Virus record (IMG/VR): IMGVR_UViG_3300042923_000474
Location: 1 to 64,000 of that record
Strand: one strand, 5' to 3'
Source: a virus
DNA length: 64,000 bases
Below are positions 30,976-47,473 of this stretch, piece by piece. A model generated the notes under the pieces. That model had not been told where the DNA came from. It ran no database searches and saw nothing but the letters and a program-made list of their open reading frames with translations. Made by a program: the position numbers and the translations under genes. Each line of letters opens with the position of its first letter. The stretch's first letter is position 1.

Positions 30976-32277
30976 ATGACTCGCAATCTCAAGCCCCATG
31001 CCGCGATGGTGCAGGAGGCTATTGCCCATCAGGGCCGTAGTCAGCTCTTCCGGGACATTTGCCTGATCTTTCGTGAGATCAAGGAACTGCCCTACAATGC
31101 CCTGACCAAGGACCTGCTCACAAAGAAGGGCTTGGATAAGGTCATCGAGAAGCACACGGGCCTCAACGTCCCTGTGAAGATCAGCCGTGAACCCTACATC
31201 AACGCCTGGGTTTATCCGCCGTACATCGATGCCAACCACGCGGTGTTCGCCGGTAACAAATACGAGCGCGACAATCCGTGGATTCTGGATTACATCAAGA
31301 AGCAGTCCGACAAGGCCTTCGGCAAGTCCGAGTCCATCTTCGGCACTGTTGACCGCGAGAAGTCTCGCGTCTCGGGTGACTTCACCAAGATCGAATGCCC
31401 GATGTTCATCACCGCGCTTTTGATCAACCGTCCAGATATCACGCCAGAAATGGCTACCTCGGTGATTCTGCACGAGCTGGGTCATGTCTTCACCTACTTC
31501 GAGTTCATGGGCCGCGTGACCACCTTCAACGGTGCTCTGCAGGCAGCCTCGGAAATGTTCTTCAAGTGCGACACCCGTGAAGACCGTCTGAAGATCATCC
31601 GCGATGTGGGTGACAAGTTCGGCGTGGACACGGACGATCGTGATGCATTGATGAATGCCCGTAACAAGGATTCGTTCATCACTGTTCTGGCTCGCGGCTA
31701 TGTCATTGACCGCAAGTCGAGCATGGGTTCTTCGATCTATGACATCACCCTCTGGGAATCGCTGTCTGACCAGTTCAGCATGCGCCATGGTTCCGGCGTG
31801 GACGGCGTCAAGATGATGGACATCCTGTACAAGAACAGCGGCGCCTCGGCGTACTCCAGCACCCTGGGCCACGTCATCTTCACCCTGTTCAAAGTGTTGA
31901 TGTTCATCATCTTCACCTTCTTCACCTTCGGCTTGCCGCTGTTGATCTTGTTCATCAACCCGGCAGAGAAGATTTATGACGAGCCTGAGGCTCGCATGAA
32001 GCGCATGCGCAACGACTTCGTGATGGGTCTCAAGTCCCCGAACATCTCTGATGAAGAGAAGAAGAAGATTGCGCAAGACGTCAAGGACATCGATGACATC
32101 ATCCGTGACCTCAATGACAAGCGCGGTCTGATCGAACTGTTCTACACCTCCTGCACACCAGAGGGTCGCCGTCAGTTCAGCCAAATGCGTTTCCAGCAAG
32201 ATGTTGAGCGCCTGATGGCCAACGACCTCTTGGTATCGTCTACCCGTCTGCAGAGTCTTGCTGACCGTCTTTCCTAA
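30976..32277 (+). CDS. Membrane protein with HExxH metallopeptidase motif
   Basis: 433 residues with a TAGGA site. HELGHVFTYFE (around residue 177) carries the zinc-binding HExxH and a third potential ligand. The C-terminal half has a long hydrophobic segment (FTLFKVLMFIIFTFFTFGLPLLILFI, about residues 306-330), enough for one or two membrane helices, followed by a charged helical tail. The domain order is soluble peptidase-like N-terminal half and membrane anchor. It stands at the head of the inner-body gene cluster (32289-39238). A virion-internal protease that enters the cell with DNA, or a membrane remodelling factor, are both possible. The catalytic role is inferred from the motif alone. 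Confidence 0.68.
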   Translation: MTRNLKPHAAMVQEAIAHQGRSQLFRDICLIFREIKELPYNALTKDLLTKKGLDKVIEKHTGLNVPVKISREPYINAWVYPPYIDANHAVFAGNKYERDNPWILDYIKKQSDKAFGKSESIFGTVDREKSRVSGDFTKIECPMFITALLINRPDITPEMATSVILHELGHVFTYFEFMGRVTTFNGALQAASEMFFKCDTREDRLKIIRDVGDKFGVDTDDRDALMNARNKDSFITVLARGYVIDRKSSMGSSIYDITLWESLSDQFSMRHGSGVDGVKMMDILYKNSGASAYSSTLGHVIFTLFKVLMFIIFTFFTFGLPLLILFINPAEKIYDEPEARMKRMRNDFVMGLKSPNISDEEKKKIAQDVKDIDDIIRDLNDKRGLIELFYTSCTPEGRRQFSQMRFQQDVERLMANDLLVSSTRLQSLADRLS

Positions 32278-32288
32278 GGAGCCCTGAC

Positions 32289-32735
32289 ATGGCCGAACTC
32301 AAGATTACCCGCAAGAAGTCGGGCTCGATCATTTCCAACATCAACCAAATGCTGACCAGCACCAAAGTTGATGCCATGGACCGTACCCCGGTTACCGAAC
32401 TGGCTTTCGCTGAGCTGATCGCTGCCACCCTGCCGTTGGCCCCACAAGGTCAAGACGTGGCGGACTTCTACCGCACCAACTGCATCGAGGGCGTCAAGGC
32501 TTTCCTCGACCAGGCCGTAGAGCTGGTGTCCATCAGCCAAGAGCAGTGCCTGCTCGCGGTGTACGGTGTGTACGCTTACCGCGTGTCGATGATCCAGCCA
32601 GAGAACCTGACTGACGTGCGCCCATGCATTGGCCGCTACATCCGTCGCCTGCCGCAGCGTCATGCTGACATGGTCATGAAGTACCCGACCCTGAACGACA
32701 ACTACTGGGCTCTGGCCGACAGCATCTACGTGTGA
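32289..32735 (+). CDS. Small unknown protein in inner-body cluster
   Basis: 148 residues with a strong AAGGAG site, starting 11 bases after the metallopeptidase stop. It begins MAELKITRKKSGSIISN and is soluble and helical, with two Cys in the middle (TNCIEGVKAFL, SQEQCLLAVYG). No membrane segment or cleavage motif. Highly optimised codons suggest an abundant product. Likely virion-associated by neighbourhood. Confidence 0.72.
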   Translation: MAELKITRKKSGSIISNINQMLTSTKVDAMDRTPVTELAFAELIAATLPLAPQGQDVADFYRTNCIEGVKAFLDQAVELVSISQEQCLLAVYGVYAYRVSMIQPENLTDVRPCIGRYIRRLPQRHADMVMKYPTLNDNYWALADSIYV

Positions 32736-32745
32736 GGCGCTGACC

Positions 32746-34083
32746 ATGAAGATGATCACTGAAGACCTGACAGAGGAGTTGTTTACCGACGACCCTCTGA
32801 TTCCTCAGGGGATCATCTCCACTTATCAAGCGATCAAGAAAAATCGCATGGTGAGCCAAGAGATGGTCAGTCCGTACATCCAGAACTTCCCGATGAACAT
32901 CTCGCTGAGCAACTTCAGTGAGCTGCCTTCGGAGAAAGGGTTGGACATCGCGCTGGAAGGCTTTGCAGTGCTGTTTAAGGTGGCTGCCGGTGTATTGCTG
33001 GTGTCTGCCTTGGGTGTGTGCATCTTTAACTTCGTGCGCTCTCGTAAGGCAGCTGAGGCAACCACTGCCAATGCGTCTAGCGGTGCCATGCTGCATAGGG
33101 AGATTACCAAGCTGTTGACGGGTATCCGTGCAGCCGGTGGCTACCATGACCGCACGATCAAGATCAAGTCCAGCGACATCCCAACTGGGGTGACTCGCCG
33201 GGCGTTGAACCTGCATGGTGAGATCACCTACACGGATTGGGCCAATAGCTTCTATGCTTACGGCCACGATCAACACTTCGTGAATGCAATCGCCTCCAAG
33301 GTTGCCACCAACCAGTTCCCCAGCGTGACCGAACACCTGATGACACCGATGGCCGATTACCTGTCGGACTTGGGTGGTCGTGTGAAACAGCTTGCCCTCA
33401 TTATTCAGGACCTGCCTGCAGCTCTGAATGCTGGTCGTCTCCCGGAGATGGTCAGGAGTATTGAGAACCTCAATATTCAAGAGGTCCGTGCCACGTTCTT
33501 GGGTCACCTGGAACGCGTCTACGGCAAAGAGCTGTCAGCCCCACGCACCATCCTGCCTGCCAACAGTGCTCTGCTGTTGGACAGTCGTGTCACCTCCCTC
33601 AAAGAGTTCTACGACAACACCCGCGAAGACAAGCACTTCGTGCGTGACCACTACCAGAACAACCTGGACCGTTGGCGCAATGGCGACGTGGAAGGGATGT
33701 TGGGTCGAATCCCTGAGATCTGTACACAGGCTTCCAAGCTGGGTGCTGCTCCATCGCTCTCTACTGGCAAGAACATTGTCGATGAGTGTGAGAAGCTGCG
33801 TCAGAAGGTGTCTGCTCAGGAAGTCCCGGAAGTGGTTGAGGATGCTCTGAAAAAGATCCTTGAAGATATTCGTCTGGACTCGGTGGCCTCGGTCAACCTG
33901 TTTGAAATGGTGATCAACGAACAACGTCAGTTCACCATCTACATTCAGGACATCCTGAACCAGACCATCGAGTGGGGTGGTGCCGTAGCAGCCTTTACCA
34001 AGCCTGTTGATCCATCAGGTGCGAGGAAGCTGTTGCGTGACGTCCAGGAAGCTACCGCGTCGACGCGCAAGGTCAAACTTTAA
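32746..34083 (+). CDS. Inner-body-type protein with propeptide and one membrane helix
   Basis: 445 residues with a GAGG site. Residues 1-71 look like a propeptide ending in the cleavage-type site IALE (after Glu71), directly followed by a hydrophobic helix (FKVAAGVLLVSALGVCIFNFV, about 73-96) and basic FVRSRK. The remaining 345 residues are helical. phiKZ-like prohead proteases cut after Glu in A/S-x-E motifs. The same site-plus-helix module recurs in the next two genes and at other places in the window. Role: packaged inner-head protein processed on maturation (family of phiKZ gp90/93/95/97-type proteins), possibly ejected into the host. Confidence 0.75.
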   Translation: MKMITEDLTEELFTDDPLIPQGIISTYQAIKKNRMVSQEMVSPYIQNFPMNISLSNFSELPSEKGLDIALEGFAVLFKVAAGVLLVSALGVCIFNFVRSRKAAEATTANASSGAMLHREITKLLTGIRAAGGYHDRTIKIKSSDIPTGVTRRALNLHGEITYTDWANSFYAYGHDQHFVNAIASKVATNQFPSVTEHLMTPMADYLSDLGGRVKQLALIIQDLPAALNAGRLPEMVRSIENLNIQEVRATFLGHLERVYGKELSAPRTILPANSALLLDSRVTSLKEFYDNTREDKHFVRDHYQNNLDRWRNGDVEGMLGRIPEICTQASKLGAAPSLSTGKNIVDECEKLRQKVSAQEVPEVVEDALKKILEDIRLDSVASVNLFEMVINEQRQFTIYIQDILNQTIEWGGAVAAFTKPVDPSGARKLLRDVQEATASTRKVKL

Positions 34084-34091
34084 TGCCAACC

Positions 34092-34124
34092 ACCCCCTAC
34101 AGGGCAATCGCTCTTGTAGGGGGT
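34092..34124 (+). terminator. Hairpin between two inner-body genes
   Basis: ACCCCCTACA / TGTAGGGGGT stem with a 13-base loop, ending 14 bases before the next ATG (34139). It is directly followed by TTTCAGGAGCTTTTT, which includes the next gene's AGGAG site. It may be an attenuator or RNA stabiliser rather than a full terminator. Confidence 0.55.
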
Positions 34125-34138
34125 TTCAGGAGCTTTTT

Positions 34139-37100
34139 ATGAAGAAGTACGATTTGGCCGCACTGGCGCAGGCGCCGGGTAAGGATCTGGTCGAATTCAT
34201 CGGTCAGAACGACAAGGTCATTGCTGAGGTCACCACCCATGTGGCCAACCTTGAACGTCTGCGTGGCACCAGTCAGGCTCACGCCCTGGGCTACATGGAA
34301 TACATGCCCGATGAAGTAACCATGGGCGACTTCGATACCCACCTGTCGAAGAAAGGCCACCAGATGTCCATGGAGGCCTTGCACACCATCCTTCTGGTGG
34401 CAGCCTCTGCTGCCGTGGTAGCTGGCATTGGTTTCATTGCGTACAAGCTGTTCAAAGCAGCTCAGTCCAAAGAACCCAAGTCGGCGAACTACGTCGAGAA
34501 GGCCGAGCAAGTTCAGCGCATGGCTGAGAAGCTCAAAGAGTTCCGTATCAAGTTTGCCGAGTCTGCCCCGGCTACCCAAGAAGCCCTCAAGCAGCGCTTC
34601 TTGGCAGACAGCGTCAAGGAAGCCATCGTTGGTATGTCCGATGCTGAACTGCTGAACGATACGTTTGTGGCCTATGTTCGCAGCGAGATGCACCGCGAGC
34701 AGCCATCGTACTTGACTGCTGTGGCCCGTTACCGTGGTGAGCAGTCCCTGTTCCTCAATGCGGCCCTCATCTATCTGGACGGCGTCAAGGAATCGCTCGA
34801 AGCATTCCGTCGCGAGTTCCTCGATGTGGTGGCCAAAGCTCCAGACATCACCGACTACCAAATGGTCAACCTGGTCAACGGCCTCAAGTGGGACCGTATC
34901 GACAACGGTAACCATGCGGGCGTTCAGGCGGTGTTCGCTTGGGCTCAGGCGATGGGGACTCCGGTCACCAACCGTGTTGAAGAAACCCTCAAGGTGGCTC
35001 ACGACACATTGGTTGCACCGATCACCACTGAACAGGTGCGCGAGTACAACCCAGACATCGTTGCAGCGACCATCCCTAAAGGTGGCTACCACAAACTGTG
35101 GGCACTGCTCAAAGGCCTCAAGGACACTGGCAAGTACATTGAAGGTGCCAAGGGTGGTTTCACTCAGGGCGAGAAGCGTTCGCAGCAAGTCGCTGACCTG
35201 TACAAGGCTCAGATCGATCGTGCCAGTCAGTTGGCCGACAGCGTGGGCATCATCGAACAGATGGCTCGTGCTGAGAGCGATGCGATTGTTCGCAACATGA
35301 AGATCTCCACCAACGCCACCAAAGCCCTGCTTAACGCCATTGAAGAAGTGGCCGATAAGCTGGAAGACAAGGAACAGGCCAAAGAGATCAAGAACGCACT
35401 GGACGCGATCACTCGCGCTACTGCCTCTGGTCTGTCCATGAAGACTGAAGGTCTCCTGGATAACGGTCTGATGCCAATCAGCTTTGGCGCTGTCATGGCA
35501 TTGGAAGGCCGTAACCAGTGGGTTGAGTTCCTGAAGTCTGTTGCGGTTGTAGCTGCCATTGGTTTGGCGATCTATGCCCTGCAAGCGCTGGTTCTCTCCA
35601 TGCTGGGTCTGCAGTCGATGGCCGCTACCTTCTCCGGTGGTGTCGTCTACATGCAGAAGAACGGCAAGCGCATCACTCCGGGCGAAGCCGCTGACATCGT
35701 GGCAGAAGCTGCCAAGGACAAACGTCTGGGCAACTACGGCGTGTTCATGTTGGCCAAGAACCAAAGCCTGCCGTTCAAGTTGACTGAGCGCCATCTGGGC
35801 TCGGGCTTCCATGACGTGTCTCAAGGCGTGGTTGAATCGCTGCGTGGCTTTGCTGGCAAGCTGCATGGCAAGCCGAAGGATCAGGACGTTATCAATGCGT
35901 CCAAAGAAGGTTCGCGTTTGGTTAAGCGCACCATCGAGATCCTCAAAGGTCGTCTCAAGGACATGAGCTTCAACGTCCCGAACGGTGACCCGCACATCCC
36001 GGCTACTACCCACCAACTGCGTGATGCCATGGAAGCATTCATGGATCAGTGGTTCAACCCAGAAAAGGCCGACTACGGTCTGATCAAGCGCGGCATTGAT
36101 ACCACCTGGTTCGGTGTACTGGACGCCAAGGCCGAGCAGCATGTGGATCAGAATGCCAAGATCCTGACCGACGGCATCACCAGCTTCTCCAAATCCATCC
36201 CTGACGTCAAGAAGGAAGACCTCAAGGAAATGGGCGAAGAGGCTCAGGAAGCCCATGCCAACTTTACTCAGGAACTGGCCTACATGGCAGCACTGGGTCA
36301 TGTGGTGACCGAGGTGACCAAGAAGGCGATCCGTGACGGCGCAATGTCGATGCAGGCTGTTCGCAGTCAGCTGAAGATGCGCGGTGAAGGTATCGAGGGC
36401 CTGGACGAGGCCGACGAAGACATGGACGACTTCCAGCCTTACGAAGAACCACTCGATCCGTTGGTGGATATGGCTGAGGCCATGGGCGACCTGTACGTGG
36501 ACGAACAGTCTGACGTGGTGATGGCAACCGAGAACCGCAAGGTCATGATCACTCGTCTGTTGATGACTGCTGGCATCGTCATCATTCTGGGCGCTGGTGC
36601 CTACATGCTGCTCTCCATGTCGCAGAATCGCCGCAAGCCTAACTCGTTTGCAACCGACAAGATGTTCAAGGACATCAAGCGCGACCTGGATGCATCGCTC
36701 AAGTCGGAAGAGTTCTCGGCCCGCATGAAAGCGAGCACTGAGCGCTTTGCCGATGATCTGCAGGAAGACCTCAAGCGGTTCAAGGCTCGTATGGATGCGG
36801 CTCGTCAGCCAGCTGGTGGCAAACAGACTGAGAAGGAAGTCAATGGTCAGCGCGTAGACAGCGGCGCTGCTCAGTCGGCAGACGTGCGTCCTCGCATTGG
36901 TGAGACCGGATCTCCAGTCAGCGGCAGCAACAATGCTTCTTCGGTCACCCCGGAAGGCAACGTCAAGTCGATCTACGAGCTGGAAAACGCCGACCTGATG
37001 CAGATCGCCAAGGACGCAGACAAGCTGGTTGAAAACATCAGCAAGTTTGACTACAAAGGTCCTCTGCGTGAGCGTTTGATCGAACGTGTGCCGGGCATGC

Positions 37101-37879
37101 TGTCATTGAACATGGCATGTGGTTCCTTCGATCAGGTTACTCGCAACATCAGCACTGACCGCGAAAAGCGTATTCATGCGTTGAGCGAGCTGACCAAGCA
37201 CATCATGGACAACGTTGTTGATCCAGTGTTTGATGTGTTGAATGCCAAGGGCGATCACGAAGCGTTGGCTGAGAAGAACTACGACGGTGTAGTGTCTGCC
37301 ATTGCCAAGGCCATTGAGGACGCGACCAAAGAAGGCCTGCTGGACGAAATCCGCATGGATGAACACCAGAAGACCTTGGACGCCTTCAAGCGCCAAAGCA
37401 CTGAAGCTGAAGTGGACGATGCAATGAAGTCGTTCAACCCAAGCTGCATTCAGACAGCTGAGCGTGTGTACCTGGGTGAGGCGAAAGCGTATCACAACCT
37501 GACCCAAGAGCTAGACACCATGATGGTCGAGAACAAAGACTTCATGAATGTCGACTCCGGTGCACGCTTCAACGAACTGAAGGGCAACCGCGACATGGCC
37601 TCCAAACTCATCCGTCGTCTGGAAGAGTTCAAGCCAACCTTCAACATCATTGCCCGTGCTGTTCGGGCCCACGTCAACCTGAGCGATGTCATCTTTGAAG
37701 CCGCGGAGTTCACCTTGCGTGTTCACCGTAGCGTTCAGCGCGAGCTGATCAAGTCGGTTGAATTCCAGGCCATGAAAGCTGCTGAACTCAAAGCCCGTCT
37801 GGGTGGCGAATCGGCTACGCTGGATGAGCTGGAGAAAGCCATCGATGACCTGCGCAATGACTTTGGCAGTGGCAAGTAA
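34139..37879 (+). CDS. Giant inner-body-type protein with three tandem cleavage/membrane modules
   Basis: 1246 residues from ATG 34139 (AGGAG site; the frame upstream to 34007 has no good start). Three units repeat the same plan: a Glu-ended cleavage-type site, then a hydrophobic helix, then a long helical region. Sites are QMSME (Glu79) with helix 83-103, VMALE (Glu456) with helix about 467-489, and VMATE (Glu798) with helix about 803-826. The gene looks like a fusion of three paralogues or a polyprotein. Prohead protease processing would release three membrane-anchored parts. Acidic and disordered linkers lie between modules (around residues 755-795 and 880-940). By position and pattern this is an inner-body/ejected protein. 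Confidence 0.75.
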   Translation: MKKYDLAALAQAPGKDLVEFIGQNDKVIAEVTTHVANLERLRGTSQAHALGYMEYMPDEVTMGDFDTHLSKKGHQMSMEALHTILLVAASAAVVAGIGFIAYKLFKAAQSKEPKSANYVEKAEQVQRMAEKLKEFRIKFAESAPATQEALKQRFLADSVKEAIVGMSDAELLNDTFVAYVRSEMHREQPSYLTAVARYRGEQSLFLNAALIYLDGVKESLEAFRREFLDVVAKAPDITDYQMVNLVNGLKWDRIDNGNHAGVQAVFAWAQAMGTPVTNRVEETLKVAHDTLVAPITTEQVREYNPDIVAATIPKGGYHKLWALLKGLKDTGKYIEGAKGGFTQGEKRSQQVADLYKAQIDRASQLADSVGIIEQMARAESDAIVRNMKISTNATKALLNAIEEVADKLEDKEQAKEIKNALDAITRATASGLSMKTEGLLDNGLMPISFGAVMALEGRNQWVEFLKSVAVVAAIGLAIYALQALVLSMLGLQSMAATFSGGVVYMQKNGKRITPGEAADIVAEAAKDKRLGNYGVFMLAKNQSLPFKLTERHLGSGFHDVSQGVVESLRGFAGKLHGKPKDQDVINASKEGSRLVKRTIEILKGRLKDMSFNVPNGDPHIPATTHQLRDAMEAFMDQWFNPEKADYGLIKRGIDTTWFGVLDAKAEQHVDQNAKILTDGITSFSKSIPDVKKEDLKEMGEEAQEAHANFTQELAYMAALGHVVTEVTKKAIRDGAMSMQAVRSQLKMRGEGIEGLDEADEDMDDFQPYEEPLDPLVDMAEAMGDLYVDEQSDVVMATENRKVMITRLLMTAGIVIILGAGAYMLLSMSQNRRKPNSFATDKMFKDIKRDLDASLKSEEFSARMKASTERFADDLQEDLKRFKARMDAARQPAGGKQTEKEVNGQRVDSGAAQSADVRPRIGETGSPVSGSNNASSVTPEGNVKSIYELENADLMQIAKDADKLVENISKFDYKGPLRERLIERVPGMLSLNMACGSFDQVTRNISTDREKRIHALSELTKHIMDNVVDPVFDVLNAKGDHEALAEKNYDGVVSAIAKAIEDATKEGLLDEIRMDEHQKTLDAFKRQSTEAEVDDAMKSFNPSCIQTAERVYLGEAKAYHNLTQELDTMMVENKDFMNVDSGARFNELKGNRDMASKLIRRLEEFKPTFNIIARAVRAHVNLSDVIFEAAEFTLRVHRSVQRELIKSVEFQAMKAAELKARLGGESATLDELEKAIDDLRNDFGSGK

Positions 37880-37891
37880 AGGAGAGCGTCT

Positions 37892-39238
37892 GTGAGCGAC
37901 TATTCCATGAAGATGGAAGAGCTGTTCGAGGACCTCACGGGAGAGGAGCCGACTCCTTTGGCCGAGCTGATGCAGCGCGAAGCCGAGGAGCAGCTCCCCA
38001 CCTATGGGGAAGACGAGGGCTCGGATCTGGATGATCAGATCCATGTGGCACAGGTTCGTGAGGATGAGTTGGTCAACATCATGGAGATGCTCCAGTCCAC
38101 TGGCGGTGTCTCCCGTGAAATGGCCAGCGGGTTCAAGGACGTCTTGCCGGAACACATGGCAATGGAATCCTTCACGTCCCAAGTGACCAAGACCAACCAC
38201 GTCATGTGTCTGGAGTTCGTGGGTACTGCGATTAAGTTGGCCGCTGCTGCTGGATTGGTAGCGGTCATCGGGGCCATTGGTTATGCGATCTATCGTATCA
38301 CCAAAACCCAAAAGCGCATGCCCAAGAACAAGTTGGATAAGGCTGTGTCTGCAGCGTTCTCCTCTGCCGAAGAGAAACTCAAGGTAGTGGTGGAAGGCCT
38401 CAAGCACGAGTACCCCAACATCGAGCACAAGGACCTCAACTGGAACAAGCAAGAGGCGTTGGTACAGGCGGCCATTCAAGCCCAGATTCAGGAGTTGGAC
38501 CTGCGCATGATGTCAGGCACCTACTCCTCTCTGATCGAGAAGGCTGCCCCCGATGCCTTGACTCAGGCCAACGAGGTCAAGACGTTCTTCGAAACCAGTA
38601 TCTTCAAAGAACTGGAGAAGATGACTCGTGGCGGTACCGGGAAAGATCTGGAAGCTGTGACCCAGAAGATCCAAGAGTTCAAGTTCGAGGACCGTGTGTC
38701 CAAACACTTGGATCGTTTCGGTCATGACATGCAGGTTAACTTCGAGCGTCCCGATCAGGTCTGTGAGAAGTTCCGTGCCAAGTACCAACGTGGTGTCAGT
38801 GCCGAGGAAGTTGCCAGTCAGCTGAAGAATGCCAAAGCTGGTGTGGCCAACATTCCAGAGCAATCGGCTACCACGATGTACAAAGCGCAGGATGTCATGA
38901 CGAGCCTGCTGTCTCGCATCAAAGCCTACGAAAAGAAGATGGACAAGACGAAAGAGCTTCCAGCTGATTACGTGGCCCAGATGAAAGGCGTGTTGCAAAA
39001 GTGCAAGGAGCCGATCAGTTCCCTAGGTGACATCTTCGCCATCTTGGAAATTGAGATCTCCTCGCAAACCCGCTGTGCCAAGATCAAAGGCATGGCAGTG
39101 GCCGATGGTTACAAGTCGGTCGCCAATCATTACAAAGAGAAAACCCTTACGGACAAGGAACACCGTAACGAGTACCGTGCTTGCGTCAAAGTGCTGGACA
39201 AGGCTTTTGACGACATTCGCGCTTCTCTGAAGTTGTGA
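37892..39238 (+). CDS. Inner-body-type protein with propeptide and one membrane helix
   Basis: 448 residues from GTG with an AAAGGAG site. The first 90 residues are acidic. Two cleavage-type sites occur: HMAME (Glu92) and VMCLE (Glu108). They precede a hydrophobic helix (IKLAAAAGLVAVIGAIGYAIY, about 113-135) and a basic segment (RITKTQKRMPKNK). The rest is a soluble helical domain. It shares this layout with 32746 and each module of 34139, so the three adjacent genes appear to be paralogues. It ends just before a convergent terminator. Confidence 0.76.
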   Translation: MSDYSMKMEELFEDLTGEEPTPLAELMQREAEEQLPTYGEDEGSDLDDQIHVAQVREDELVNIMEMLQSTGGVSREMASGFKDVLPEHMAMESFTSQVTKTNHVMCLEFVGTAIKLAAAAGLVAVIGAIGYAIYRITKTQKRMPKNKLDKAVSAAFSSAEEKLKVVVEGLKHEYPNIEHKDLNWNKQEALVQAAIQAQIQELDLRMMSGTYSSLIEKAAPDALTQANEVKTFFETSIFKELEKMTRGGTGKDLEAVTQKIQEFKFEDRVSKHLDRFGHDMQVNFERPDQVCEKFRAKYQRGVSAEEVASQLKNAKAGVANIPEQSATTMYKAQDVMTSLLSRIKAYEKKMDKTKELPADYVAQMKGVLQKCKEPISSLGDIFAILEIEISSQTRCAKIKGMAVADGYKSVANHYKEKTLTDKEHRNEYRACVKVLDKAFDDIRASLKL

Positions 39239-39270: not shown

Positions 39271-39277
39271 TATGCCG

Positions 39278-42211
39278 TTACTCCATGCCTCGACCAGGCA
39301 GGTGTCTTACAAACGAGAAGTCCACGTCTTCCTCAACGGTGTAAGTACCGTCCGGCAGCGCAGTCAGCTTCTTGGCAATAGACATGCGTCCACTGTCGTC
39401 AGCCATCGTTACCAACGGATAGTTCTTGTCACCGCCCAGCCCTTGAATGCGGATCGCAATGATACTGCCGCCAGAGTTTTCCTTAGCCGCGTTACCAATG
39501 TCTTGCACCACAGTCGTAGCCAGGTTGAGACCTTCTGCCAGATAGCCAATGATAGCCACTCGCAGTTTCTCTTTGAGTTCCTCGTTCTTCCAATCGTTCT
39601 CGTTCATGTACACCGTCACCTTGAACGCCTGTTCGGCTTGCAGGGTAACCGATGCACCACCTTCCACAATCGCCTTGAGCATGCCAGTGGTGGCCATTGG
39701 CTTGAGGTAGAGTGTGGTCTTTTCCAACGCGCGCTTGTTGGTCTCCGTCATGTCAGAGCCGGCCCATTGCAACAGCTTATCGCAGATGGTGGTCATGTAG
39801 TTGATGGTGGACTGATCATTGGCGAAGTAGTAGCGCCCGTCGAACAGAGTCAAGTCAATCTGGCGAGCCAGCTGACGCCCTGTCTTCAGAACCTTATCAC
39901 CGTTGACATCACGGACGAAGTCACCTGCGTACTTGTCGTACTTAGGCGTGCCGTCTGGCATCAGAACAGGATCACCTGCCTTGTTGACAATCTCCGTCAC
40001 CAGTTTCCCATCCACCAACTCAATCTTGAGACTGCCGTCTGGATTGGTGGCCAACTCGTTCTCTTTGTAGAACGCCGGCACGTTGTAATCGTAGACCTCG
40101 TAGTCGGCTTCGGTGGTGACCGTACGGCTACCCGACCACAGATACTTCAACGGACTGCCCAACTTGACCCGCACACGTTCCTGCAAGATACCAATGGCAT
40201 CGTACGGCAACATGTTGCGGTTCTTGTCTTGATCGATCGTGGTTTCTTTCATGTCCAAGACTTTGTAGTCCGAGACGGTGTAGATGAGATTGAACTCCAC
40301 GGTCAAATCAATCTGATGCGGCAGAGGACCATCCCCGAACATGGAGAAGTTCTTGAGCGTCAGCGTATCGGCAGCATCAATGGCGTAGGTCGTTTCCAGC
40401 AGGAAGCCGTACACACGGTCCTTACCATCTTTGGCGATCAGCGTACCGTTGAGGTAAGCCATGCTGCTCTCACCTGGTGGCGTGTAAGCCAACTGCACCT
40501 GAACCTGAGTGTCATCCAGATCCTGATACAGTTCACCGCTCTGAGTCAGCACGTAGATCTGGTAACCCGCTTCCACACGCTCCACAATGATCGTCTTGGC
40601 CGTCTTCAGGTCAAGTTGCAGCGTAGGGTTCTCCAGCGTGTAACGACGCGAGAGGATCTCTGGGGCGTCCAGGTAGTAGCAGCGCACAGCAAAGCTTTCG
40701 TTAGCCGCATCCAGCACCCAATGGAAAGGGCTGAAACGGTAACCCGCTGAACTGATCTGTCTGGCCATGGCTTCTGGCTTGAGCTGACGCAGGTCATCGA
40801 TCTCACCTTGACGCACAAACGAGATAGCACCGTCTTGATGTTTGAACAACACCGAGGGATGCAGCGTCACAGAGTCACCGTTGTGGGTAACACCTGGAAT
40901 GCCATTAAGCTCTGCCATGCGCACCACGATGTTTTCTACGGCTGCCGAGATCGGAGTGACCGTATACTTGTCAAGTGGCGTAGCGAGCGCTCGGGTGGCG
41001 TTCAGGGTACGTTTTGTGATAGCGTCGACGTCCTTGACCGAGTTGTACTCAGAATCGCTCAGCACTTGGGCCAAGTTAACCTGGGTGATCGGCAGGTTGA
41101 TCGCACCGGTGTTGTGTTGCATCACACGGTCACGCAACTGTTCCAGCGTCAGCGCTTTACTGCCACCCGACGTGTAGCCATCGCAGTAAACCGAATACGT
41201 GGACACCTTCGCCCAGTTCGCGGTGTACTTGCCATTGTCCTCGTTGTCAAGGTCAATCCATTCCTCGGACCACTCGTTAGGCGTGTAGCCATCCCAACGG
41301 GTATCGTTCTCGGCACGGGTGGTATAAACGTCAAGCCGCAGTTCACCTGTGATCAAGCCGCTGGTCTGATAGACCAATGGGATACGGGCTTCCATCACGC
41401 CACTGTAAACCTTGACCAACACCGTCGGGACGTACGGGTCGAAGGTCTGATCCGTGTAACTCACACGAATCTCTTTCCAACCGAGCGTACCATCGTCATT
41501 ACGGACACGGCTGTAGGCACGGGTGTAGTGATAAAGGTTGCGGAACGTCATGCGAGTGTTCCACACCACCGCTTGGTTCAGCTGGTAGACCTCACTCATG
41601 ATCTCCATCTGACTGACGCTGGCTTTAACCATCAGCATCGGTGTACCGTCAGTGCTGGTATCCTGCACGGTTTCCAACAGGTTACCGTTGGACTCATGTA
41701 GCACGCCATTGACAGGGACGCCATAAACAACGCTCGGTTCACCCACTGGTGGGATACGGAACTCGATTGGGTATTCCAATGTGAAAGGAACACCGGCACA
41801 GGTGAACACCGAGTTCTTCGGCATCACCAACTTACGCATCCCACCGGGTGTTACTTCCACCGCGTAACGCAGAATCTCGTCACGGCTAACCAGAATGGTG
41901 AAAGGTGCGCTAGGCGGCTTGGAGAAGATGTTCAGGAAATCCCGGTCGGTCATGTGCAGATAAAGGTCTTCTGCAGTCAGGGCCAACCCAGGGAAACGCT
42001 TACGGTGCAGGACGTCAATGGCATTGAGCACATGAGCACCAGACGCCGCAGCCATTTCCCACAGCAACATAAAAGGAGTGGAGGGGTCAACCAAGCGGTA
42101 GTTACCCGCTAGGTTATCGTCCACCGCATCCAGAACACTGAGCGCTTTACCGGCAGGATCAAAGCGCGCGTCGTCCATGGCCTTCATCAGATCTTCGCTG
42201 GTCATGGTCAT
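39278..42211 (-). CDS. Large tail/baseplate-type structural protein
   Basis: 977 residues with an AGGTG site. It is soluble, mostly beta with long strand-rich stretches and no membrane segment or enzyme motif. Patterns such as LTAEDLYLHMTDRDFLNIFSKPPSAPFTILVS near the start resemble N-terminal regions of baseplate wedge-type proteins. The size is in the range of phage baseplate wedge proteins. Identification is by character only. It is translationally coupled (ATGA overlap) to the upstream 42208 gene, so the two probably form a complex. No specific name is justified. Confidence 0.62.
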   Translation of the reverse strand: MTMTSEDLMKAMDDARFDPAGKALSVLDAVDDNLAGNYRLVDPSTPFMLLWEMAAASGAHVLNAIDVLHRKRFPGLALTAEDLYLHMTDRDFLNIFSKPPSAPFTILVSRDEILRYAVEVTPGGMRKLVMPKNSVFTCAGVPFTLEYPIEFRIPPVGEPSVVYGVPVNGVLHESNGNLLETVQDTSTDGTPMLMVKASVSQMEIMSEVYQLNQAVVWNTRMTFRNLYHYTRAYSRVRNDDGTLGWKEIRVSYTDQTFDPYVPTVLVKVYSGVMEARIPLVYQTSGLITGELRLDVYTTRAENDTRWDGYTPNEWSEEWIDLDNEDNGKYTANWAKVSTYSVYCDGYTSGGSKALTLEQLRDRVMQHNTGAINLPITQVNLAQVLSDSEYNSVKDVDAITKRTLNATRALATPLDKYTVTPISAAVENIVVRMAELNGIPGVTHNGDSVTLHPSVLFKHQDGAISFVRQGEIDDLRQLKPEAMARQISSAGYRFSPFHWVLDAANESFAVRCYYLDAPEILSRRYTLENPTLQLDLKTAKTIIVERVEAGYQIYVLTQSGELYQDLDDTQVQVQLAYTPPGESSMAYLNGTLIAKDGKDRVYGFLLETTYAIDAADTLTLKNFSMFGDGPLPHQIDLTVEFNLIYTVSDYKVLDMKETTIDQDKNRNMLPYDAIGILQERVRVKLGSPLKYLWSGSRTVTTEADYEVYDYNVPAFYKENELATNPDGSLKIELVDGKLVTEIVNKAGDPVLMPDGTPKYDKYAGDFVRDVNGDKVLKTGRQLARQIDLTLFDGRYYFANDQSTINYMTTICDKLLQWAGSDMTETNKRALEKTTLYLKPMATTGMLKAIVEGGASVTLQAEQAFKVTVYMNENDWKNEELKEKLRVAIIGYLAEGLNLATTVVQDIGNAAKENSGGSIIAIRIQGLGGDKNYPLVTMADDSGRMSIAKKLTALPDGTYTVEEDVDFSFVRHLPGRGME

Positions 42212-43359
42212 ACGACAGCACCTGTTGTGTTAGGGGTGAGAGACTGAACGATCGCTTGGGCAGATTGGCTATCGAGCTTGCCACCGTAACCAATGGGCAT
42301 CAATGCACCTTTAGGTACACGAGTGTTCCACGCCACTTGTCGATCATTCATCCGTGCAGCATACACTTCCTTAGAAACCCAGCGTTCCAAGATTTGTTCC
42401 TCTGGGTCAATCCAGAAAAACGTGTCGTAAGTAAAGAGGTGGAAGGTGTCTTCATTCAACTGAACCATCGCCGTGTTCCGAAGAGCTGGGTGCATGTTCG
42501 GGTTAAAGTATGCGACGATGTTATTGAACTCTGTGAAGACGATCGGGTCGAAGGTATCGCACCCGTGACACTTCCAGTTCACGCCCACCTGTTGACCGTC
42601 CGTGTTGAACGGGTTGTCGATGGACATGTTGGCACCTGTAGCAGAAGGCGCAACGTACGGATAAGCAATTGTGGACCACCAGCTCGTAATACGCTTTTTG
42701 TTTGCGTCCAGAGCGAAGCGGTAGATCCGCGTGTGATAGTCGATACGGTGCTGCATGATCGAGTCCGGCAACGGTACCAAATCGCCCTCGTAAATGAGGG
42801 AGCCGTAGCACACCCACGCGAAAAGCAACATTACTATGACGTTACCCGACCCGTTACGCAGTGTCGTATTCAGATCCCACACCCTGAAGTTCTTGATCGT
42901 ATCGTCGATCATGCTCCAGGACTCATGGTGGTTACCCTCAACAGAGGAGAACGTACCCGGTGAGATCTCTGGCCAACCGGACTGAGACATCAGACCGTTG
43001 GACAGCCAAGGAATGAACGCTTGCTCATGGTTTGTCAGGGGGGAGCCTCTGCCGTTACGCCAAACGCCGACTGGGTCCAACATGGCCCGGACAGCACGAG
43101 GCAGGCTTATCCCGTCATTGCCCCCGATCATGCTAAAGAATGGTCGGAAGGCACGTAGGTTGCCGTCGGTAAAGTTCAGCCGCGGTCTGGTGAAGAAAGT
43201 CAGGCCAAACTGTTCCCGCACAGGCGGCATCGAGGGATGTGTCCCAAGGCTGTTGATGCCCCGCAATTGCTCGTAAATCGATGATACGGAACTACCCTTA
43301 CCACCGATTCGCGAGATGTAGTCAAAAATCTTTTCGTATTGTTCGCTGCTTAAACTCAT
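42208..43359 (-). CDS. Unknown structural protein coupled to 39278
   Basis: 383 residues from ATG 43359 with a GGAGGG site. The sequence has many aromatic residues and CHGCDTFDP (CxxC) near residue 270. No known fold recognised. It forms a two-gene operon with the 977-residue gene, with stop and start overlapping. Its start lies only 32 bases from the start of the divergent plus gene at 43392. Likely a tail or baseplate component, by neighbourhood only. Confidence 0.68.
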   Translation of the reverse strand: MSLSSEQYEKIFDYISRIGGKGSSVSSIYEQLRGINSLGTHPSMPPVREQFGLTFFTRPRLNFTDGNLRAFRPFFSMIGGNDGISLPRAVRAMLDPVGVWRNGRGSPLTNHEQAFIPWLSNGLMSQSGWPEISPGTFSSVEGNHHESWSMIDDTIKNFRVWDLNTTLRNGSGNVIVMLLFAWVCYGSLIYEGDLVPLPDSIMQHRIDYHTRIYRFALDANKKRITSWWSTIAYPYVAPSATGANMSIDNPFNTDGQQVGVNWKCHGCDTFDPIVFTEFNNIVAYFNPNMHPALRNTAMVQLNEDTFHLFTYDTFFWIDPEEQILERWVSKEVYAARMNDRQVAWNTRVPKGALMPIGYGGKLDSQSAQAIVQSLTPNTTGAVV

Positions 43360-43391
43360 ATTCCCTCCAGACCGGTCAGGAGCACCCCCCA

Positions 43392-44690
43392 ATGAACATC
43401 AACATTCTGCCAGACCTCAGCCTGGCAGCAGCCCCGTTCACCACGGTTCTAGGCAATGCACTCAAGGTGGCTGCGACCACTAATAGCGACAGCATCATAC
43501 AGTATTCCGCTCCAGCCCGTGTGGAGCCGATCTGTCTGGTGGATGCTGCCTTGGCCCAGTATGAACATCTGTACCCAATCCTGCAGACGACCAACAGCAT
43601 CTTTGCTGCGTACTACATGCAGGCCGCTGCCTCGATGATCAACGTGTCGGCCATGCGTCTGCTCCGCGACATCGACCCGCTCAAGCCTGACCGCAACATG
43701 AACGCGGCTATCTTTGACTTCGTTGAACGTTCGGGCCAACAGGTCTACGGCGACAACAAGTCTCTGCCGTCGCGTGTCGAAGGCAAGGTACTGGAGATCG
43801 TGACTGAATCGATGTCCCTGCCTCGCCCTGGCGCTGCAGAGCCTCACATGACCTTCATGATCACTGAAGCTGCCGATGGCAAGCCTGTGTTCAAGGTAGC
43901 GTCCCCTGAAGAGGTCAAGCGCTACAAGGAAGCCTCCGCCAAGGCTGCCACCGATCTGGCCAAGAAGGAATACGAGAAGAATCTCGCTGACCTCAAGTCT
44001 GCCGGTAACATGGCCAAGTCCAGCGGCGTAGGCATGAGCAATGCCGTGATGGATACTCCGAACCTTGCAGTGGGCAAGATCTTCGAAGTCTCTGCTGACT
44101 ACGGTCAAGGCGTTGTGACCATTCAGGTTATCGTCGCCCTGAAGACCATGATCACCAGCTCGCAGAACCTGCAAGACATCTATGCCACCGGTGGTGAGCT
44201 GCGTAGCGCCAGTGAGCGCTGGCACGGCTGGCGTTCGGGCCAACTCCGTTTTGTCGAAGACATCATGTTCTGCTCCGACATCATCGAGAACCATCGCCGC
44301 ACTGCAATCCGCGACAACACTGGCGTCTACCTGCTCAACCGTGAGCGCGACACCAAGAACCGCGTGACTGCACTGCTGACTGGCAAGGCGTCTATCGGCA
44401 CTGCCTCGGGCATCGCCGTGTTCGACTCCGTCACTGCCAAGCGTCTGGAAGCTGCCGTGGGTGGCAAGCTCTCCGACTTCAACACCCGCGAGAAGATCTT
44501 CAAGCGTACCTACGCGATGAACATTATCGTGGTTGACCGCGAGTGGGAAGACGTCACTGTCTACAACCGCGGTATCCCGAAAGCGGTTGAAATGCCGATC
44601 GCCGAATACACCCGCTCCAAGAGCAAGGGTGGCTCCGACGTGGCTGACATCGTCAAACTGTTCCTGTCTGGCTCTGCCCCTACTCTCTGA
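43392..44690 (+). CDS. Unknown virion-type protein
   Basis: 432 residues with an AGGAG site 9 bases before ATG; upstream in-frame starts lie inside the divergent gene. The N terminus (MNINILPDLSLAAAPFTTVLG) is hydrophobic but lacks a signal-peptide pattern. There is a Lys/Glu/Ala coiled segment (VKRYKEASAKAATDLAKKEYEKNLADLKSAGN, about 175-205), then a compact domain. Very biased codons suggest high expression. No MAxE cleavage site is seen. It may be a tail or head-neck protein. No family recognised. Confidence 0.7.
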   Translation: MNINILPDLSLAAAPFTTVLGNALKVAATTNSDSIIQYSAPARVEPICLVDAALAQYEHLYPILQTTNSIFAAYYMQAAASMINVSAMRLLRDIDPLKPDRNMNAAIFDFVERSGQQVYGDNKSLPSRVEGKVLEIVTESMSLPRPGAAEPHMTFMITEAADGKPVFKVASPEEVKRYKEASAKAATDLAKKEYEKNLADLKSAGNMAKSSGVGMSNAVMDTPNLAVGKIFEVSADYGQGVVTIQVIVALKTMITSSQNLQDIYATGGELRSASERWHGWRSGQLRFVEDIMFCSDIIENHRRTAIRDNTGVYLLNRERDTKNRVTALLTGKASIGTASGIAVFDSVTAKRLEAAVGGKLSDFNTREKIFKRTYAMNIIVVDREWEDVTVYNRGIPKAVEMPIAEYTRSKSKGGSDVADIVKLFLSGSAPTL

Positions 44691-44720
44691 GTAGGGCAAC
44701 CCCTTTAAAGGATTGTATCC

Positions 44721-45629
44721 ATGAAGATCACCGCATTCGTCGACAAGATCGTCGACGGTTTCAGTCGCAATGCTACGGTCAACGTACACGCGGCAGTTGT
44801 AAAAGAGATGAACGATACCACGATCCCGGTGTTGGAAACTTTCATCGAGTACGTGGAAAGCGATTCCCGTGCCAAGAAAGTCATCTCGGGTTTTGGCAAA
44901 GACTTCGTGACCCGCCTCGGTCGCGGTGGTAAGGGTGAGTTCTACGATCGCATCCTCGCTGCCATGAACGCCAACGTGGCACAAGCCGGTGACGTGGAAG
45001 ACCTGATCGCTAAGCTGATCCCGAAAGACGCGGACGCTCAGTCGCTTGATGGTCGTGCTGCCAACCTCGTGCAGTATGTCGAGATCATGGGCTTCACCAA
45101 CCGCTACCTGCGCCACCTGTTGCTGTCCTTCACCCAGGACATCACCAAGGCTATCAAAGGGCCCGACTTCAAACAAGGCCTGACCGACAGCCAACTCAAA
45201 GGCCTGCAGGCCAACATGAGTGCATTCGCTACCGCGATCTCCGTGTTGGAAACTGCTGCGTCTGGTGTGGACCGTGCGATCAAGAACATCCCTGAGTTCA
45301 ACGTCGCCCTGACCGACATCGACGCCATGACGGCTGCGAACGGTGCTGCGAAGATGGACCCATTGGGCACCAGCGGTTTCTTCTCTGCCGACTGGAACCC
45401 GATCCTGGCTGTTCGCATGTTGTACGAAGATCGCATCATCGCGAACTACCAAGGCGCCAAGGAAGACCGTCAGGCTCTGGAATATCGCATCCAGGCTTTG
45501 AAGGACTCCAAAGATGGCACCACCAACCCACGGTTGGAAGAAACCATCAACTACCACACCGGTCGCCTCAAAGAGGTGAACAAGAAGATCGAGAAGTACG
45601 AAGCCTCGGTCAAGGAGCCCTCCAAATGA
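44721..45629 (+). CDS. Unknown helical virion-type protein
   Basis: 302 residues with an AAAGGA site. All-helical soluble protein. Long amphipathic segments, no membrane segment, no cleavage motif and a Lys-rich C terminus (LKEVNKKIEKYEASVKE, coiled-coil-like). Its stop overlaps the next start (ATGA). Strong codon bias implies abundance. The function is unknown. Confidence 0.7.
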   Translation: MKITAFVDKIVDGFSRNATVNVHAAVVKEMNDTTIPVLETFIEYVESDSRAKKVISGFGKDFVTRLGRGGKGEFYDRILAAMNANVAQAGDVEDLIAKLIPKDADAQSLDGRAANLVQYVEIMGFTNRYLRHLLLSFTQDITKAIKGPDFKQGLTDSQLKGLQANMSAFATAISVLETAASGVDRAIKNIPEFNVALTDIDAMTAANGAAKMDPLGTSGFFSADWNPILAVRMLYEDRIIANYQGAKEDRQALEYRIQALKDSKDGTTNPRLEETINYHTGRLKEVNKKIEKYEASVKEPSK

Positions 45630-46180
45630 ATGACCGCGGGTTCGACGTCTACAGCAGCGGGTTTGCACGCCTGAACCCGCTCCAGGCCGGTACGGGCTAC
45701 AAAGAGCCTGATACTATGGCAGTTACTCACTATGATGGTATGGTTAAAGGCCAGCTTGCCGTCGTGGATGCAAAACACTTCGACAGCGTCATGCGTAATG
45801 CTTTGGCATTGCTCGGCACGGGGCCTGACTGGATTCAAATCCAGACCATGAATCCCAACCTCTCCCGCTACCAAGTAGACTTTATGGTTGACACTGTCAA
45901 TTATATAGCCACTGGGAAACGCCGCTATTATCTAGCGACGTGGCGTGAGTTGCACGCTGATGCGAACAACAACGGTTCGGTAAAGCCTATTGTTATGGGT
46001 GGCCGTATCGTGAACCCCGAAATCAAAGTGCCCCCTGAGCTACTCAAGGGACACCCCACGGAAATCATATCCCGCTGGATCTCCCGAGAGGGCGGTGTAG
46101 TGGATTTGATAGAGTCGCTGCACTTGATGTTCGGTGGAGACATCGAAGTCGGTGAGATCGGCTCGCTAGTAGCTAGCTAG
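45626..46180 (+). CDS. Unknown protein
   Basis: 184 residues, coupled to the previous gene (ATGA) with GGAG in the upstream reading frame. Alpha/beta with clear central strand DWIQIQTMNPN and a helix-rich C terminus (GGVVDLIESLHLMFGG). Codon choice is weaker than in the genes on either side, so expression is probably lower. No family recognised. It may assist or regulate the abundant neighbours. Confidence 0.68.
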   Translation: MNDRGFDVYSSGFARLNPLQAGTGYKEPDTMAVTHYDGMVKGQLAVVDAKHFDSVMRNALALLGTGPDWIQIQTMNPNLSRYQVDFMVDTVNYIATGKRRYYLATWRELHADANNNGSVKPIVMGGRIVNPEIKVPPELLKGHPTEIISRWISREGGVVDLIESLHLMFGGDIEVGEIGSLVAS

Positions 46181-46216
46181 CGCTAACGCAATCAACAACT
46201 CTGGAGTTACAACCTC

Positions 46217-47473
46217 ATGCGTAAATTTGGCAATCGCCGCCCGTCCGTCGGCGGCATGGCGCTGGAAAACATTGAAGGCGCCGATCAAACTGCAGCCGAA
46301 ATCGATCTGGACACCGACAGCCAACACGGCGACGGCGCTGACCAGGCTCTGTTGGAGCTGAAAGACGTTCAGAACGATCAAGACGGCAACGAAGCCGCCG
46401 TGGGCGACCTGGAAAACACCGTCGCTGCTCTGGAATCCCTGCTGGAAACCGCAGAAGCTGCCACCGAAACCGGCGGTCTGGACCCAGTTGCTGCTGACCT
46501 GCTGCAAAAAGCGGTCGAGAACGAAACTGCTCCACTGGGCACCCCAGCTGAAGAAGTCGTTCCTGCCCTGGAAAACTTCCAGTCGCCGTCCAACCGTCGT
46601 CAAGCCACCGTCATGGCGTGCGAAGGCATCCGCGAGTGGATCGACAAAGTCTGGGCCAAGATCAAAGAGCTGATCCAGAAAGGTCGTGACCTGGCCAAGA
46701 AAGCCTACGTCGCGGTCAAGCAGTTCATCCAGCGTATCGAGCCGCGCATCAAGGCGCTGCAAGCTGACCTGGGTAACCGCAACTTCTCGATGCCGAAATC
46801 CGGCAACGTCAGCGTCAGCGGCGAATGGGCTCTGAGCGAAGTGGGCAAGCTGGAAAAGCTGGCCGACTCGATCCTGACCAAATACACCGCCGGCGCAATC
46901 GCGCACGCCAAGTCGATCGCTTCCGCTCTGTCGGCCGGCGATGCTGCCAAGGCTGCCGAAGGCGAAGAGAAGAAAGAGCAAGCCGCTCCAGAATTCACCG
47001 TTCCTGCTGACCTGGCGCGCGCCGTCAAGCCTGCTCTGGACGCTGACTTCTTCTCCGGCCTGCCTGGCGGTCGTGTCATGGCTTCGGCCGGTGACGTCCT
47101 GACCATCCGCACCAAAACTGCGGGTGCCAAAGGCGGCGCTGAAGGTTCGAAAGCAGCCGGCGAAGCTGACATCAAGTCGGCTCTGGACAGCCTGGCCAAC
47201 GTGGCCAAAGTTGTTATCGGCTACGAGAAGAACTTCCAGGAGAAGGACCGTGCGCAGGAAGAAGTTATCCGCGCTGGTGACACCTTCGCCAAGAAGGCCA
47301 AGGCGAACGACAAAGGCGACGACGCTCAGGCTCGCGCTGCTGTCAACGCTGCCAAGGATGCCGGTCGTTACCTCGACCAGCCTGCCAAGGACACCCTGAA
47401 CTACCTGGTCACCGCGATCAACGGCTACTGCACCACGATCGCCGGCCACCTGAAGCACTACGACAAGAAGTAA
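46217..47473 (+). CDS. Inner-body-type protein with acidic propeptide
   Basis: 418 residues with a GGAG site. Residues 1-136 are strongly acidic (Asp/Glu/Ala-rich, e.g. LDTDSQHGDGADQALLELKD) and end in VMACE (Glu136), a clear prohead-protease-type site. GMALE (Glu17) and PALE (Glu119) are further candidates. The mature part is basic and amphipathic helical (GIREWIDKVWAKIKELIQKGRDLAKKAYVAVKQ) and then Ala/Lys/Glu-rich. An acidic propeptide removed from a basic mature protein is typical of internal DNA-contacting head proteins of this group. No membrane helix, unlike 32746-39238. Confidence 0.74.
   Translation: MRKFGNRRPSVGGMALENIEGADQTAAEIDLDTDSQHGDGADQALLELKDVQNDQDGNEAAVGDLENTVAALESLLETAEAATETGGLDPVAADLLQKAVENETAPLGTPAEEVVPALENFQSPSNRRQATVMACEGIREWIDKVWAKIKELIQKGRDLAKKAYVAVKQFIQRIEPRIKALQADLGNRNFSMPKSGNVSVSGEWALSEVGKLEKLADSILTKYTAGAIAHAKSIASALSAGDAAKAAEGEEKKEQAAPEFTVPADLARAVKPALDADFFSGLPGGRVMASAGDVLTIRTKTAGAKGGAEGSKAAGEADIKSALDSLANVAKVVIGYEKNFQEKDRAQEEVIRAGDTFAKKAKANDKGDDAQARAAVNAAKDAGRYLDQPAKDTLNYLVTAINGYCTTIAGHLKHYDKK

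What the first reader, a model, noticed from the sequence alone, without database searches (positions are those of the whole stretch)
31000..47473. Recurrent MAxE cleavage site, often followed by a membrane helix and basic stop
Ten cleavage-type sites share the form M/I-A/S/C-x-E: capsid Glu45 and Glu144, 32746 Glu71, 34139 Glu79/Glu456/Glu798, 37892 Glu92/Glu108, and 46217 Glu17/Glu136. In the inner-body genes at 32746-39238 each site is followed within 4-15 residues by a hydrophobic helix and basic residues. The 46217 protein has the site but no membrane helix. This gives a sequence rule for the prohead protease (phiKZ gp175 type cuts after Glu) and suggests that cleavage exposes membrane helices in proteins that later enter the host.
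Basis: partly seen in the sequence, partly recalled or inferred. Interest (0 to 1): 0.65.

Follow-up and report, generated by a model that had tools for sequence, protein, structure and literature searches.

The report
Jumbo-phage head proteins cut before helix
This giant nucleus-forming phage appears to trim several of the proteins inside its head at one short signal (Met-Ala-any-Glu), and in one fast-changing gene slot the cut would free a protein that begins with a membrane-type helix; the cutting rule is a new flavour of a known one, while the multiplied helix proteins are candidates for the unknown machinery that carries phage DNA across the host membrane.

Summary
The observation largely holds. 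The window is a chimallivirus (chimallin, major capsid protein). Orthologues of the proteins known to be cleaved in Salmonella phage SPN3US carry 12 M-A-x-E sites against 1.5 expected; the rest of the genome is at chance (6 against 8.0). The genome has a Peptidase_S80 prohead protease, outside the window. Nine of the ten listed sites are supported by conservation or alignment to mass-spectrometry sites. Glu456 of 34139 is not (MALE, MELE, MDLQ in three relatives).

The site-plus-helix is not several independent events. Genes 32746, 34139 and 37892 fill the slot of SPN3US gp47 / phiKZ gp86, and their N-termini share one homologous propeptide-site-helix module with that family. Its Glu column coincides with measured sites in gp47 (111), phiKZ gp86 (122) and 201phi2-1 gp148 (113). 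Of 67 non-redundant members, 60 keep the site; 35 follow it with a membrane-type helix, 25 with a less hydrophobic one.

The A-x-E rule, and a membrane helix after the cut in gp47, were already published. New are Met at P4, the gp47-gp86 link and the expanded slot. Membrane insertion is unproven: phiKZ gp86 is solved as a capsid vertex-binding protein.

The parts
30976..32277 (+). SPN3US gp45 orthologue; predicted short propeptide ending MVQE-14 (codon 31015-31017)
   Evidence: Synteny with SPN3US gp45, phrog_2767; MVQE|AIAHQ identical in three relatives and aligned with MS site ASE-20 (PMC10052503)
32746..34083 (+). gp47/gp86-slot protein A: propeptide, IALE-71 site, hydrophobic helix 75-93, helical mature domain
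   Evidence: Slot synteny; site and helix conserved in G001/G002; module HMM E 2.5e-24 (window copies were in the seed)
32818..33024 (+). Homologous propeptide-site-helix module of A (site codon 32956-32958; helix 32968-33024)
   Evidence: HMM alignment residues 25-93; hhalign A vs B1, C, D
34139..37879 (+). gp47/gp86-slot protein B, 1246 aa, three hydrophobic helices (83-101, 468-486, 802-820); predicted cuts at E79 and E798
   Evidence: Same length and three helices in G001 and G002; S[MT]E-79 and VMAxE-798 conserved, E456 not
34220..34456 (+). Homologous propeptide-site-helix module of B (MSME-79, codon 34373-34375; helix 34385-34441)
   Evidence: HMM alignment residues 28-106
35504..35596 (+). 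Glu456 (35504-35506) and hydrophobic segment 468-486: segment conserved, site NOT conserved
   Evidence: VMALE / VMELE / MMDLQ in the three relatives
36530..36598 (+). MATE-798 (36530-36532) plus helix 802-820; site conserved as VMA[TQI]E; no clear homology to the N-terminal module
37892..39238 (+). gp47/gp86-slot protein C: sites MAME-92 and MCLE-108, helix 116-134; mature domain modelled like phiKZ gp86
   Evidence: Conserved sites; Foldseek to 8y6v_G prob 0.99, TM(target) 0.40
38063..38305 (+). Homologous propeptide-site-helix module of C (E92 38165-38167, E108 38213-38215, helix 38237-38293)
   Evidence: HMM alignment residues 58-138
39278..42211 (-). SPN3US gp48 / phiKZ gp87 orthologue bounding the slot
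   Evidence: phrog_3248 E 4.8e-272; alignment A1
43392..44690 (+). SPN3US gp50 orthologue with candidate site IVTE-139 (43806-43808)
   Evidence: phrog_3239; IV[TQ]E conserved in three relatives; not cleanly aligned with the SPN3US site
46217..47473 (+). phiKZ_IP-type internal head protein (gp53/gp93 family), sites MALE-17 (46265-46267) and MACE-136 (46622-46624), no membrane helix
   Evidence: PF12699 E 2.6e-37; MACE-136 invariant in three relatives and aligned with MS site AQE-125 of SPN3US gp53
56473..58794 (+). Major capsid protein; sites MAVE-45, MASE-144 and the probable maturation site MAQE-161 (56953-56955)
   Evidence: phrog_3231; MAQE-161 aligned with SPN3US gp75 ATE-130

Best explanation
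Genes 32746, 34139 and 37892 are an expanded gp47/gp86 slot of a chimallivirus. Each begins with a conserved propeptide (about 70-110 residues) that probably targets the protein into the prohead, as T4 capsid-targeting sequences do (inferred). The phage's S80 prohead protease cuts after Glu at M-A-x-E (small variants at P3; occasional Ile at P4). It cuts MCP, portal, the gp45-, gp50- and gp53-type proteins and itself by the same rule (inferred from alignment to measured sites). In the slot proteins the cut leaves a mature protein whose first segment is a hydrophobic, membrane-type helix followed in most by basic residues. 34139 is predicted to be cut at E79 and E798, not at E456, giving one two-helix and one one-helix product. 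The most likely use of the helix is that the mature proteins leave the head with the DNA and anchor in the host inner membrane, at the entry site or in the early infection vesicle (inferred, not shown). In phiKZ-like members a less hydrophobic, apparently amphipathic helix takes its place.
For: MAxE enrichment confined to head proteins. Protease present with S80 family match and its own conserved SMALE near the SPN3US autocleavage site. Sites aligned to SPN3US MS sites in MCP, gp45, gp53 and portal (PMC10052503). Propeptide-site-helix module shared by A, B1, C and off-window D and with the gp47/gp86 family (hhalign prob 95.7, E 9.5e-9). A seed HMM finds only slot proteins and D in the own genome, SPN3US, phiKZ and 201phi2-1 pieces at E<=0.01. 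The Glu column coincides with measured SQE-122 (phiKZ), SQE-113 (201phi2-1) and ALE-111 (SPN3US) (PMC5694885). Three-gene, five-helix architecture kept in two relatives at 59-81% identity. Site followed by a hydrophobic segment in 35 of 60 sited non-redundant members. SPN3US gp47 is essential, its mutant makes complete-looking but non-viable particles, and a TMH is predicted after ALE-111 (PMC5694885).
Against: No protein data exist for this phage. phiKZ gp86 is modelled in the capsid and named vertex-binding in Pfam PF25617, and the protein C model resembles it, so the helix could serve packing in the shell. 25 of 60 sited members lack a hydrophobic helix, so membrane spanning is not a family-wide need. 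Glu456 fails conservation. I found no injection assay of gp86 or gp47 in the papers read; gp86 is not mentioned in the injection study. Helices were called with a Kyte-Doolittle window, not a trained topology predictor.
Confidence: 0.57

Rival explanations
1. The slot proteins are capsid-bound vertex proteins. After the cut, the exposed hydrophobic helix packs against the inner shell or its neighbours (for example a five-fold helix bundle) and the protein is not ejected.
For: Pfam PF25617 names phiKZ gp86 'vertex-binding'; chain G of 8y6v is gp86, 297 residues in the Foldseek entry against 306 in the mature protein. Foldseek of the C model to 8y6v_G prob 0.99. Many family members have a less hydrophobic helix at this place.
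Against: The C model has TM-score only 0.40 to the target and mean pLDDT 59. The window helices reach KD 2.0-2.5 over 19 residues, most with flanking basic residues, more than packing requires. The slot evolves fast and expands, unlike conserved shell proteins. The SPN3US gp47 mutant forms normal-looking particles (PMC5694885).
Confidence: 0.3
2. Both: the protein sits at the capsid vertex or portal region during storage and is released with the DNA, the helix switching from packed to membrane-inserted.
For: Reconciles the capsid location of gp86 with the ejection inference for gp47 (PMC5694885).
Against: No direct evidence; I know of no precedent for release of a vertex-bound protein through the tail and tested none.
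Confidence: 0.1
3. The motif is chance plus inheritance: short A-x-E strings are common, and the site-helix unit recurs only because the genes are paralogues, with no protease role.
For: [AS]xE is not enriched genome-wide; A, B1, C and D are homologous at the N-terminus.
Against: MAxE 12 vs 1.5 in head proteins and at chance elsewhere; sites coincide with measured cleavage sites in three other phages.
Confidence: 0.03

Closest known systems
SPN3US gp47 (essential head ejection-protein candidate, Salmonella phage)
   Same: Same gene slot between gp46 and gp48; long propeptide; cut at ALE-111; predicted transmembrane helix just after the cut (PMC5694885)
   Different: One gene with one unit in SPN3US; here three genes with five helices, four of them after conserved sites, plus an off-window paralogue; P4 is Val in SPN3US and Met or Ile here
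phiKZ gp86 / 201phi2-1 gp148 (PF25617)
   Same: Same slot, homologous N-terminal module, cut at the same alignment column (SQE-122, SQE-113); C-model fold similarity to 8y6v_G
   Different: Less hydrophobic, apparently amphipathic helix after the cut; PF25617 does not match the window proteins
S80 prohead protease motif: phiKZ gp175 (LSxE; S/A/G-x-E), SPN3US gp245 (V-A-x-E)
   Same: Cut after Glu with a small residue at P3; substrates MCP, portal, inner head proteins, itself (PMC10449902, PMC10052503)
   Different: Met preferred at P4 in this lineage
phiKZ_IP internal head proteins (PF12699; phiKZ gp93/95, SPN3US gp53/54)
   Same: 46217 is a clear member with conserved sites
   Different: No hydrophobic helix; only one copy found in this genome

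Membership tests
Peptidase S80 prohead protease system (phiKZ gp175 / SPN3US gp245) | An S80-family protease encoded by the phage | tested here: met
   G000:136359-137153(+), PF20034 E 1.5e-73, 35% to SPN3US gp245; outside the window
Peptidase S80 prohead protease system (phiKZ gp175 / SPN3US gp245) | Cleavage after Glu with small P3 residue in head proteins | tested here: inconclusive
   Sequence evidence strong; actual cleavage needs mass spectrometry or in-vitro digestion
gp47/gp86 slot family | Gene position between gp46 and gp48 orthologues | tested here: met
gp47/gp86 slot family | Homologous N-terminal propeptide with [FY]T..P[ST].T....[AS]xE and helix | tested here: met
   hhalign window group vs family 95.7%, E 9.5e-9; HMM. 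Met for 32746, the 34139 N-terminus and 37892; not for the second and third units of 34139
PF25617 PhiKZ_gp86 | Match to the Pfam model | tested here: not met
   No PF25617 hit for 32746, 34139, 37892, SPN3US gp47 or pVa-21
PF25617 PhiKZ_gp86 | Mature fold as in 8y6v_G | tested here: inconclusive
   37892 model hits it at prob 0.99 but TM 0.40 and modest pLDDT; the 32746 model, pLDDT 52, does not list it among its best 50
Ejected membrane proteins | Entry into the host cell and membrane insertion | not testable with these tools
   Hydrophobic helix and basic flank only
phiKZ_IP (PF12699), for 46217 | Match to the Pfam model | tested here: met
   E 2.6e-37 over residues 53-404

The most novel reading that the evidence does not exclude
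The slot proteins are protease-activated membrane proteins that build the entry pore or the early infection vesicle membrane of chimalliviruses. The number of units (one in SPN3US, up to five in the slot here, three genes in L115) would be tuned to the host envelope. A pore-like helical fold is possible: the top hits of the low-confidence 32746 model are alpha-pore-forming proteins, but at probability 0.33 or less.
Probability: 0.18. Interest if true: 0.82.

Novelty: new variant of a known kind. Interest (0 to 1): 0.48.

Why it matters
Nucleus-forming phages wrap their incoming DNA in a membrane vesicle whose formation and channels are unexplained (PMC12908238). The gp47/gp86 slot is a conserved, rapidly diverging source of virion proteins that acquire a membrane-type N-terminus only after head maturation, which makes them concrete candidates to test. 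The alignment also ties SPN3US gp47, said to have no easily identifiable phiKZ homologue (PMC5694885), to phiKZ gp86 through a shared propeptide. It gives a usable rule (M-A-x-E) for predicting cleaved proteins in this lineage: outside the chosen set it also picked the orthologue of gp262, which the SPN3US group already suspected (PMC10052503).

Tried and rejected
Nucleotide and protein searches of the three genes in the phage collection gave no match, and PHROGs and Pfam gave nothing significant, so synteny and profiles were needed. I considered that 34139 is a triplicated polyprotein of one module: rejected for units 2 and 3, which show no clear homology to the module (the B1/B2 and B2/B3 hits only reflect overlapping ranges that I chose). 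I rejected Glu456 as a site. I rejected [MI] at P4 as the rule: Ile adds no enrichment. The structure models were shallow (3 sequences; pLDDT 59 and 52), and the best viral and PDB matches are weak apart from gp86. The hits of 32746 to alpha-pore-forming toxins have probability 0.33 or less and TM-scores of about 0.2 or less, so they are not used as evidence. Slots that were mis-delimited (for example L053, L054, L118) or lacked a bounding gene were left out.
Full report
What the window is. The window lies at 1-64000 of a 231,724-base virus record. It encodes chimallin (phrog_4795), phage multisubunit RNA polymerase parts, a DNA polymerase, and the phiKZ-type major head protein at 56473-58794. 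It is therefore a nucleus-forming jumbo phage (chimallivirus). Genes 29157(-) to 47473 follow the order of Salmonella phage SPN3US gp44-gp53: 30976 = gp45, 32289 = gp46, 32746/34139/37892 in the place of gp47, 39278(-) = gp48, 42208(-) = gp49, 43392 = gp50, 44721 = gp51, 45626 = gp52, 46217 = gp53.

Is the motif real? I called genes over the whole record from pieces with a simple codon-usage model (199 genes). I took as head set the orthologues of the SPN3US proteins shown by mass spectrometry to be cleaved (MCP, portal, protease, gp45, gp47 slot, gp50, gp53; PMC10052503), plus the off-window slot paralogue D. M-A-x-E occurs 12 times there against 1.5 in within-protein shuffles (none of 1000 reach 12), and 6 times in the other 189 genes against 8.0. 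Ile, Val or Leu at P4 show no excess, and [AS]xE alone is at chance.

Do the individual sites hold? Two relatives carry the same region: G001 (L008/L012, 65-81% identity over the three slot proteins) and G002 (L009, 59-75%). E71, E79, E798, E92, E108 and gp53-type E136 are kept; E17 is MALE/MVLE/MAIE; MCP E45 and E144 are kept in G001. Glu456 is lost (MALE, MELE, MDLQ), although the hydrophobic stretch after it is conserved. In alignment with SPN3US, MCP MAQE-161 matches ATE-130, gp45-type MVQE-14 matches ASE-20, gp53-type MACE-136 matches AQE-125, and portal ITLE-198 matches ATE-161. The protease gene (G000:136359-137153, Peptidase_S80) has a conserved SMALE-197 nine residues before the position aligned with the SPN3US autocleavage site.

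One homologous module, not many coincidences. The N-terminal ~100 residues of 32746, 34139, 37892 and an off-window paralogue (G000:157053-158372(-)) are homologous to each other. As a group they match the N-termini of the gp47/gp86 slot family with hhalign probability 95.7 and E 9.5e-9. A hidden Markov model of this module was searched against 8529 ORFs from this genome, SPN3US, phiKZ, 201phi2-1, other phages and 80 viral contigs. In this genome and those three phages it finds only the slot genes and the paralogue at E 0.01 or better; the window copies were part of the seed, so their own E-values are not independent. In 67 non-redundant members the pattern is G[MV]SR..A, then [FY]T..P[ST].T....[AS]xE, then a helix; Glu is 85% conserved in its column. 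That column holds the measured sites of 201phi2-1 gp148 (SQE-113), of phiKZ gp86 (E116 in the GenBank frame, SQE-122 with the six extra residues seen in the PDB chain) and, within a one-residue alignment shift, of SPN3US gp47 (ALE-111) (PMC5694885). Thus the key sites here rest on measured cleavage in three relatives.

The helix. Of 60 members with the site, 35 have a hydrophobic 19-residue segment (KD at least 1.6) starting within about 20 residues; 25, including phiKZ gp86 and 201phi2-1 gp148, have a less hydrophobic segment that reads as amphipathic (by inspection only; no hydrophobic moment was computed). The window helices score 2.0-2.45. Four of the five helices in the window follow conserved sites; the second in 34139 does not. 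The slot is also expanded independently elsewhere: L115 has three slot genes, each with site and helix, and L105 has two. Expansion and fast divergence resemble genes under host-directed selection (inference; the SPN3US authors argued the same for gp47, PMC5694885).

How it most likely works. Shown by sequence: the protease, the sites, the module and the helix. Inferred: the propeptide targets the protein to the prohead, the protease cuts at maturation, the mature protein starts with a membrane-type helix, leaves with the DNA and anchors in the host inner membrane. Support for the last steps is the SPN3US gp47 mutant, whose virions look complete but are non-viable, and its predicted helix (PMC5694885). 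The early infection vesicle of these phages holds injected virion proteins and must have unidentified channels (PMC12908238), which is why these proteins deserve testing.

Main rival. Pfam calls phiKZ gp86 a vertex-binding protein and it is chain G of capsid structure 8y6v. A modest model of 37892 (pLDDT 59) has that chain as its second PDB match with probability 0.99 and TM-score 0.40. The helix may therefore serve packing in the shell. The tools here cannot decide; tagged-protein injection assays can.

What is new. Known: A-x-E / LSxE specificity (PMC10052503, PMC10449902) and a helix after the cut in gp47 (PMC5694885). New here, to my knowledge: Met at P4 in this lineage; a profile-level link between gp47 and gp86; the conserved propeptide pattern across the slot family; the five-helix, three-gene expansion with an off-window paralogue; and a further predicted substrate, the gp262 orthologue (MALE-30, conserved in three genomes), which the SPN3US group had suspected (PMC10052503).

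Noticed in passing
G000:158383-159708(-) (L041:14383-15708): Orthologue of SPN3US gp262 (phrog_2921) with MALE-30 conserved in three relatives; phage homologues mostly align from about residue 26-38, so it probably has a short cleaved leader.
   Followed up: partly
G000:157053-158372(-) (L004:4054-5373): Sixth propeptide-site-helix paralogue next to the gp262 orthologue; only a 135-aa frame in G001 and two tandem copies in G002.
   Followed up: partly
L010 / L046 (IMGVR_UViG_3300028889_000009): The 37892 orthologue is split into 189- and 256-aa frames, while closely matching contigs have it whole: a frameshift or sequencing error.
   Followed up: no
L115 (IMGVR_UViG_3300034161_000008): Independent expansion of the gp47 slot: three genes of 431, 461 and 442 aa, each with an [AS]xE site before a hydrophobic helix.
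   Followed up: partly
L014:10755-16411 (Goslar gp065, gp064): The slot holds two genes of about 930 aa; both match the module HMM near the N-terminus without the canonical site, and gp065 has its hydrophobic segment at residue 574 after TMESF.
   Followed up: no
window 34097-36301(-), 43449-45668(-), 39272-40750(+): Long open frames opposite real genes; probably shadow ORFs of the coding strand rather than genes.
   Followed up: no
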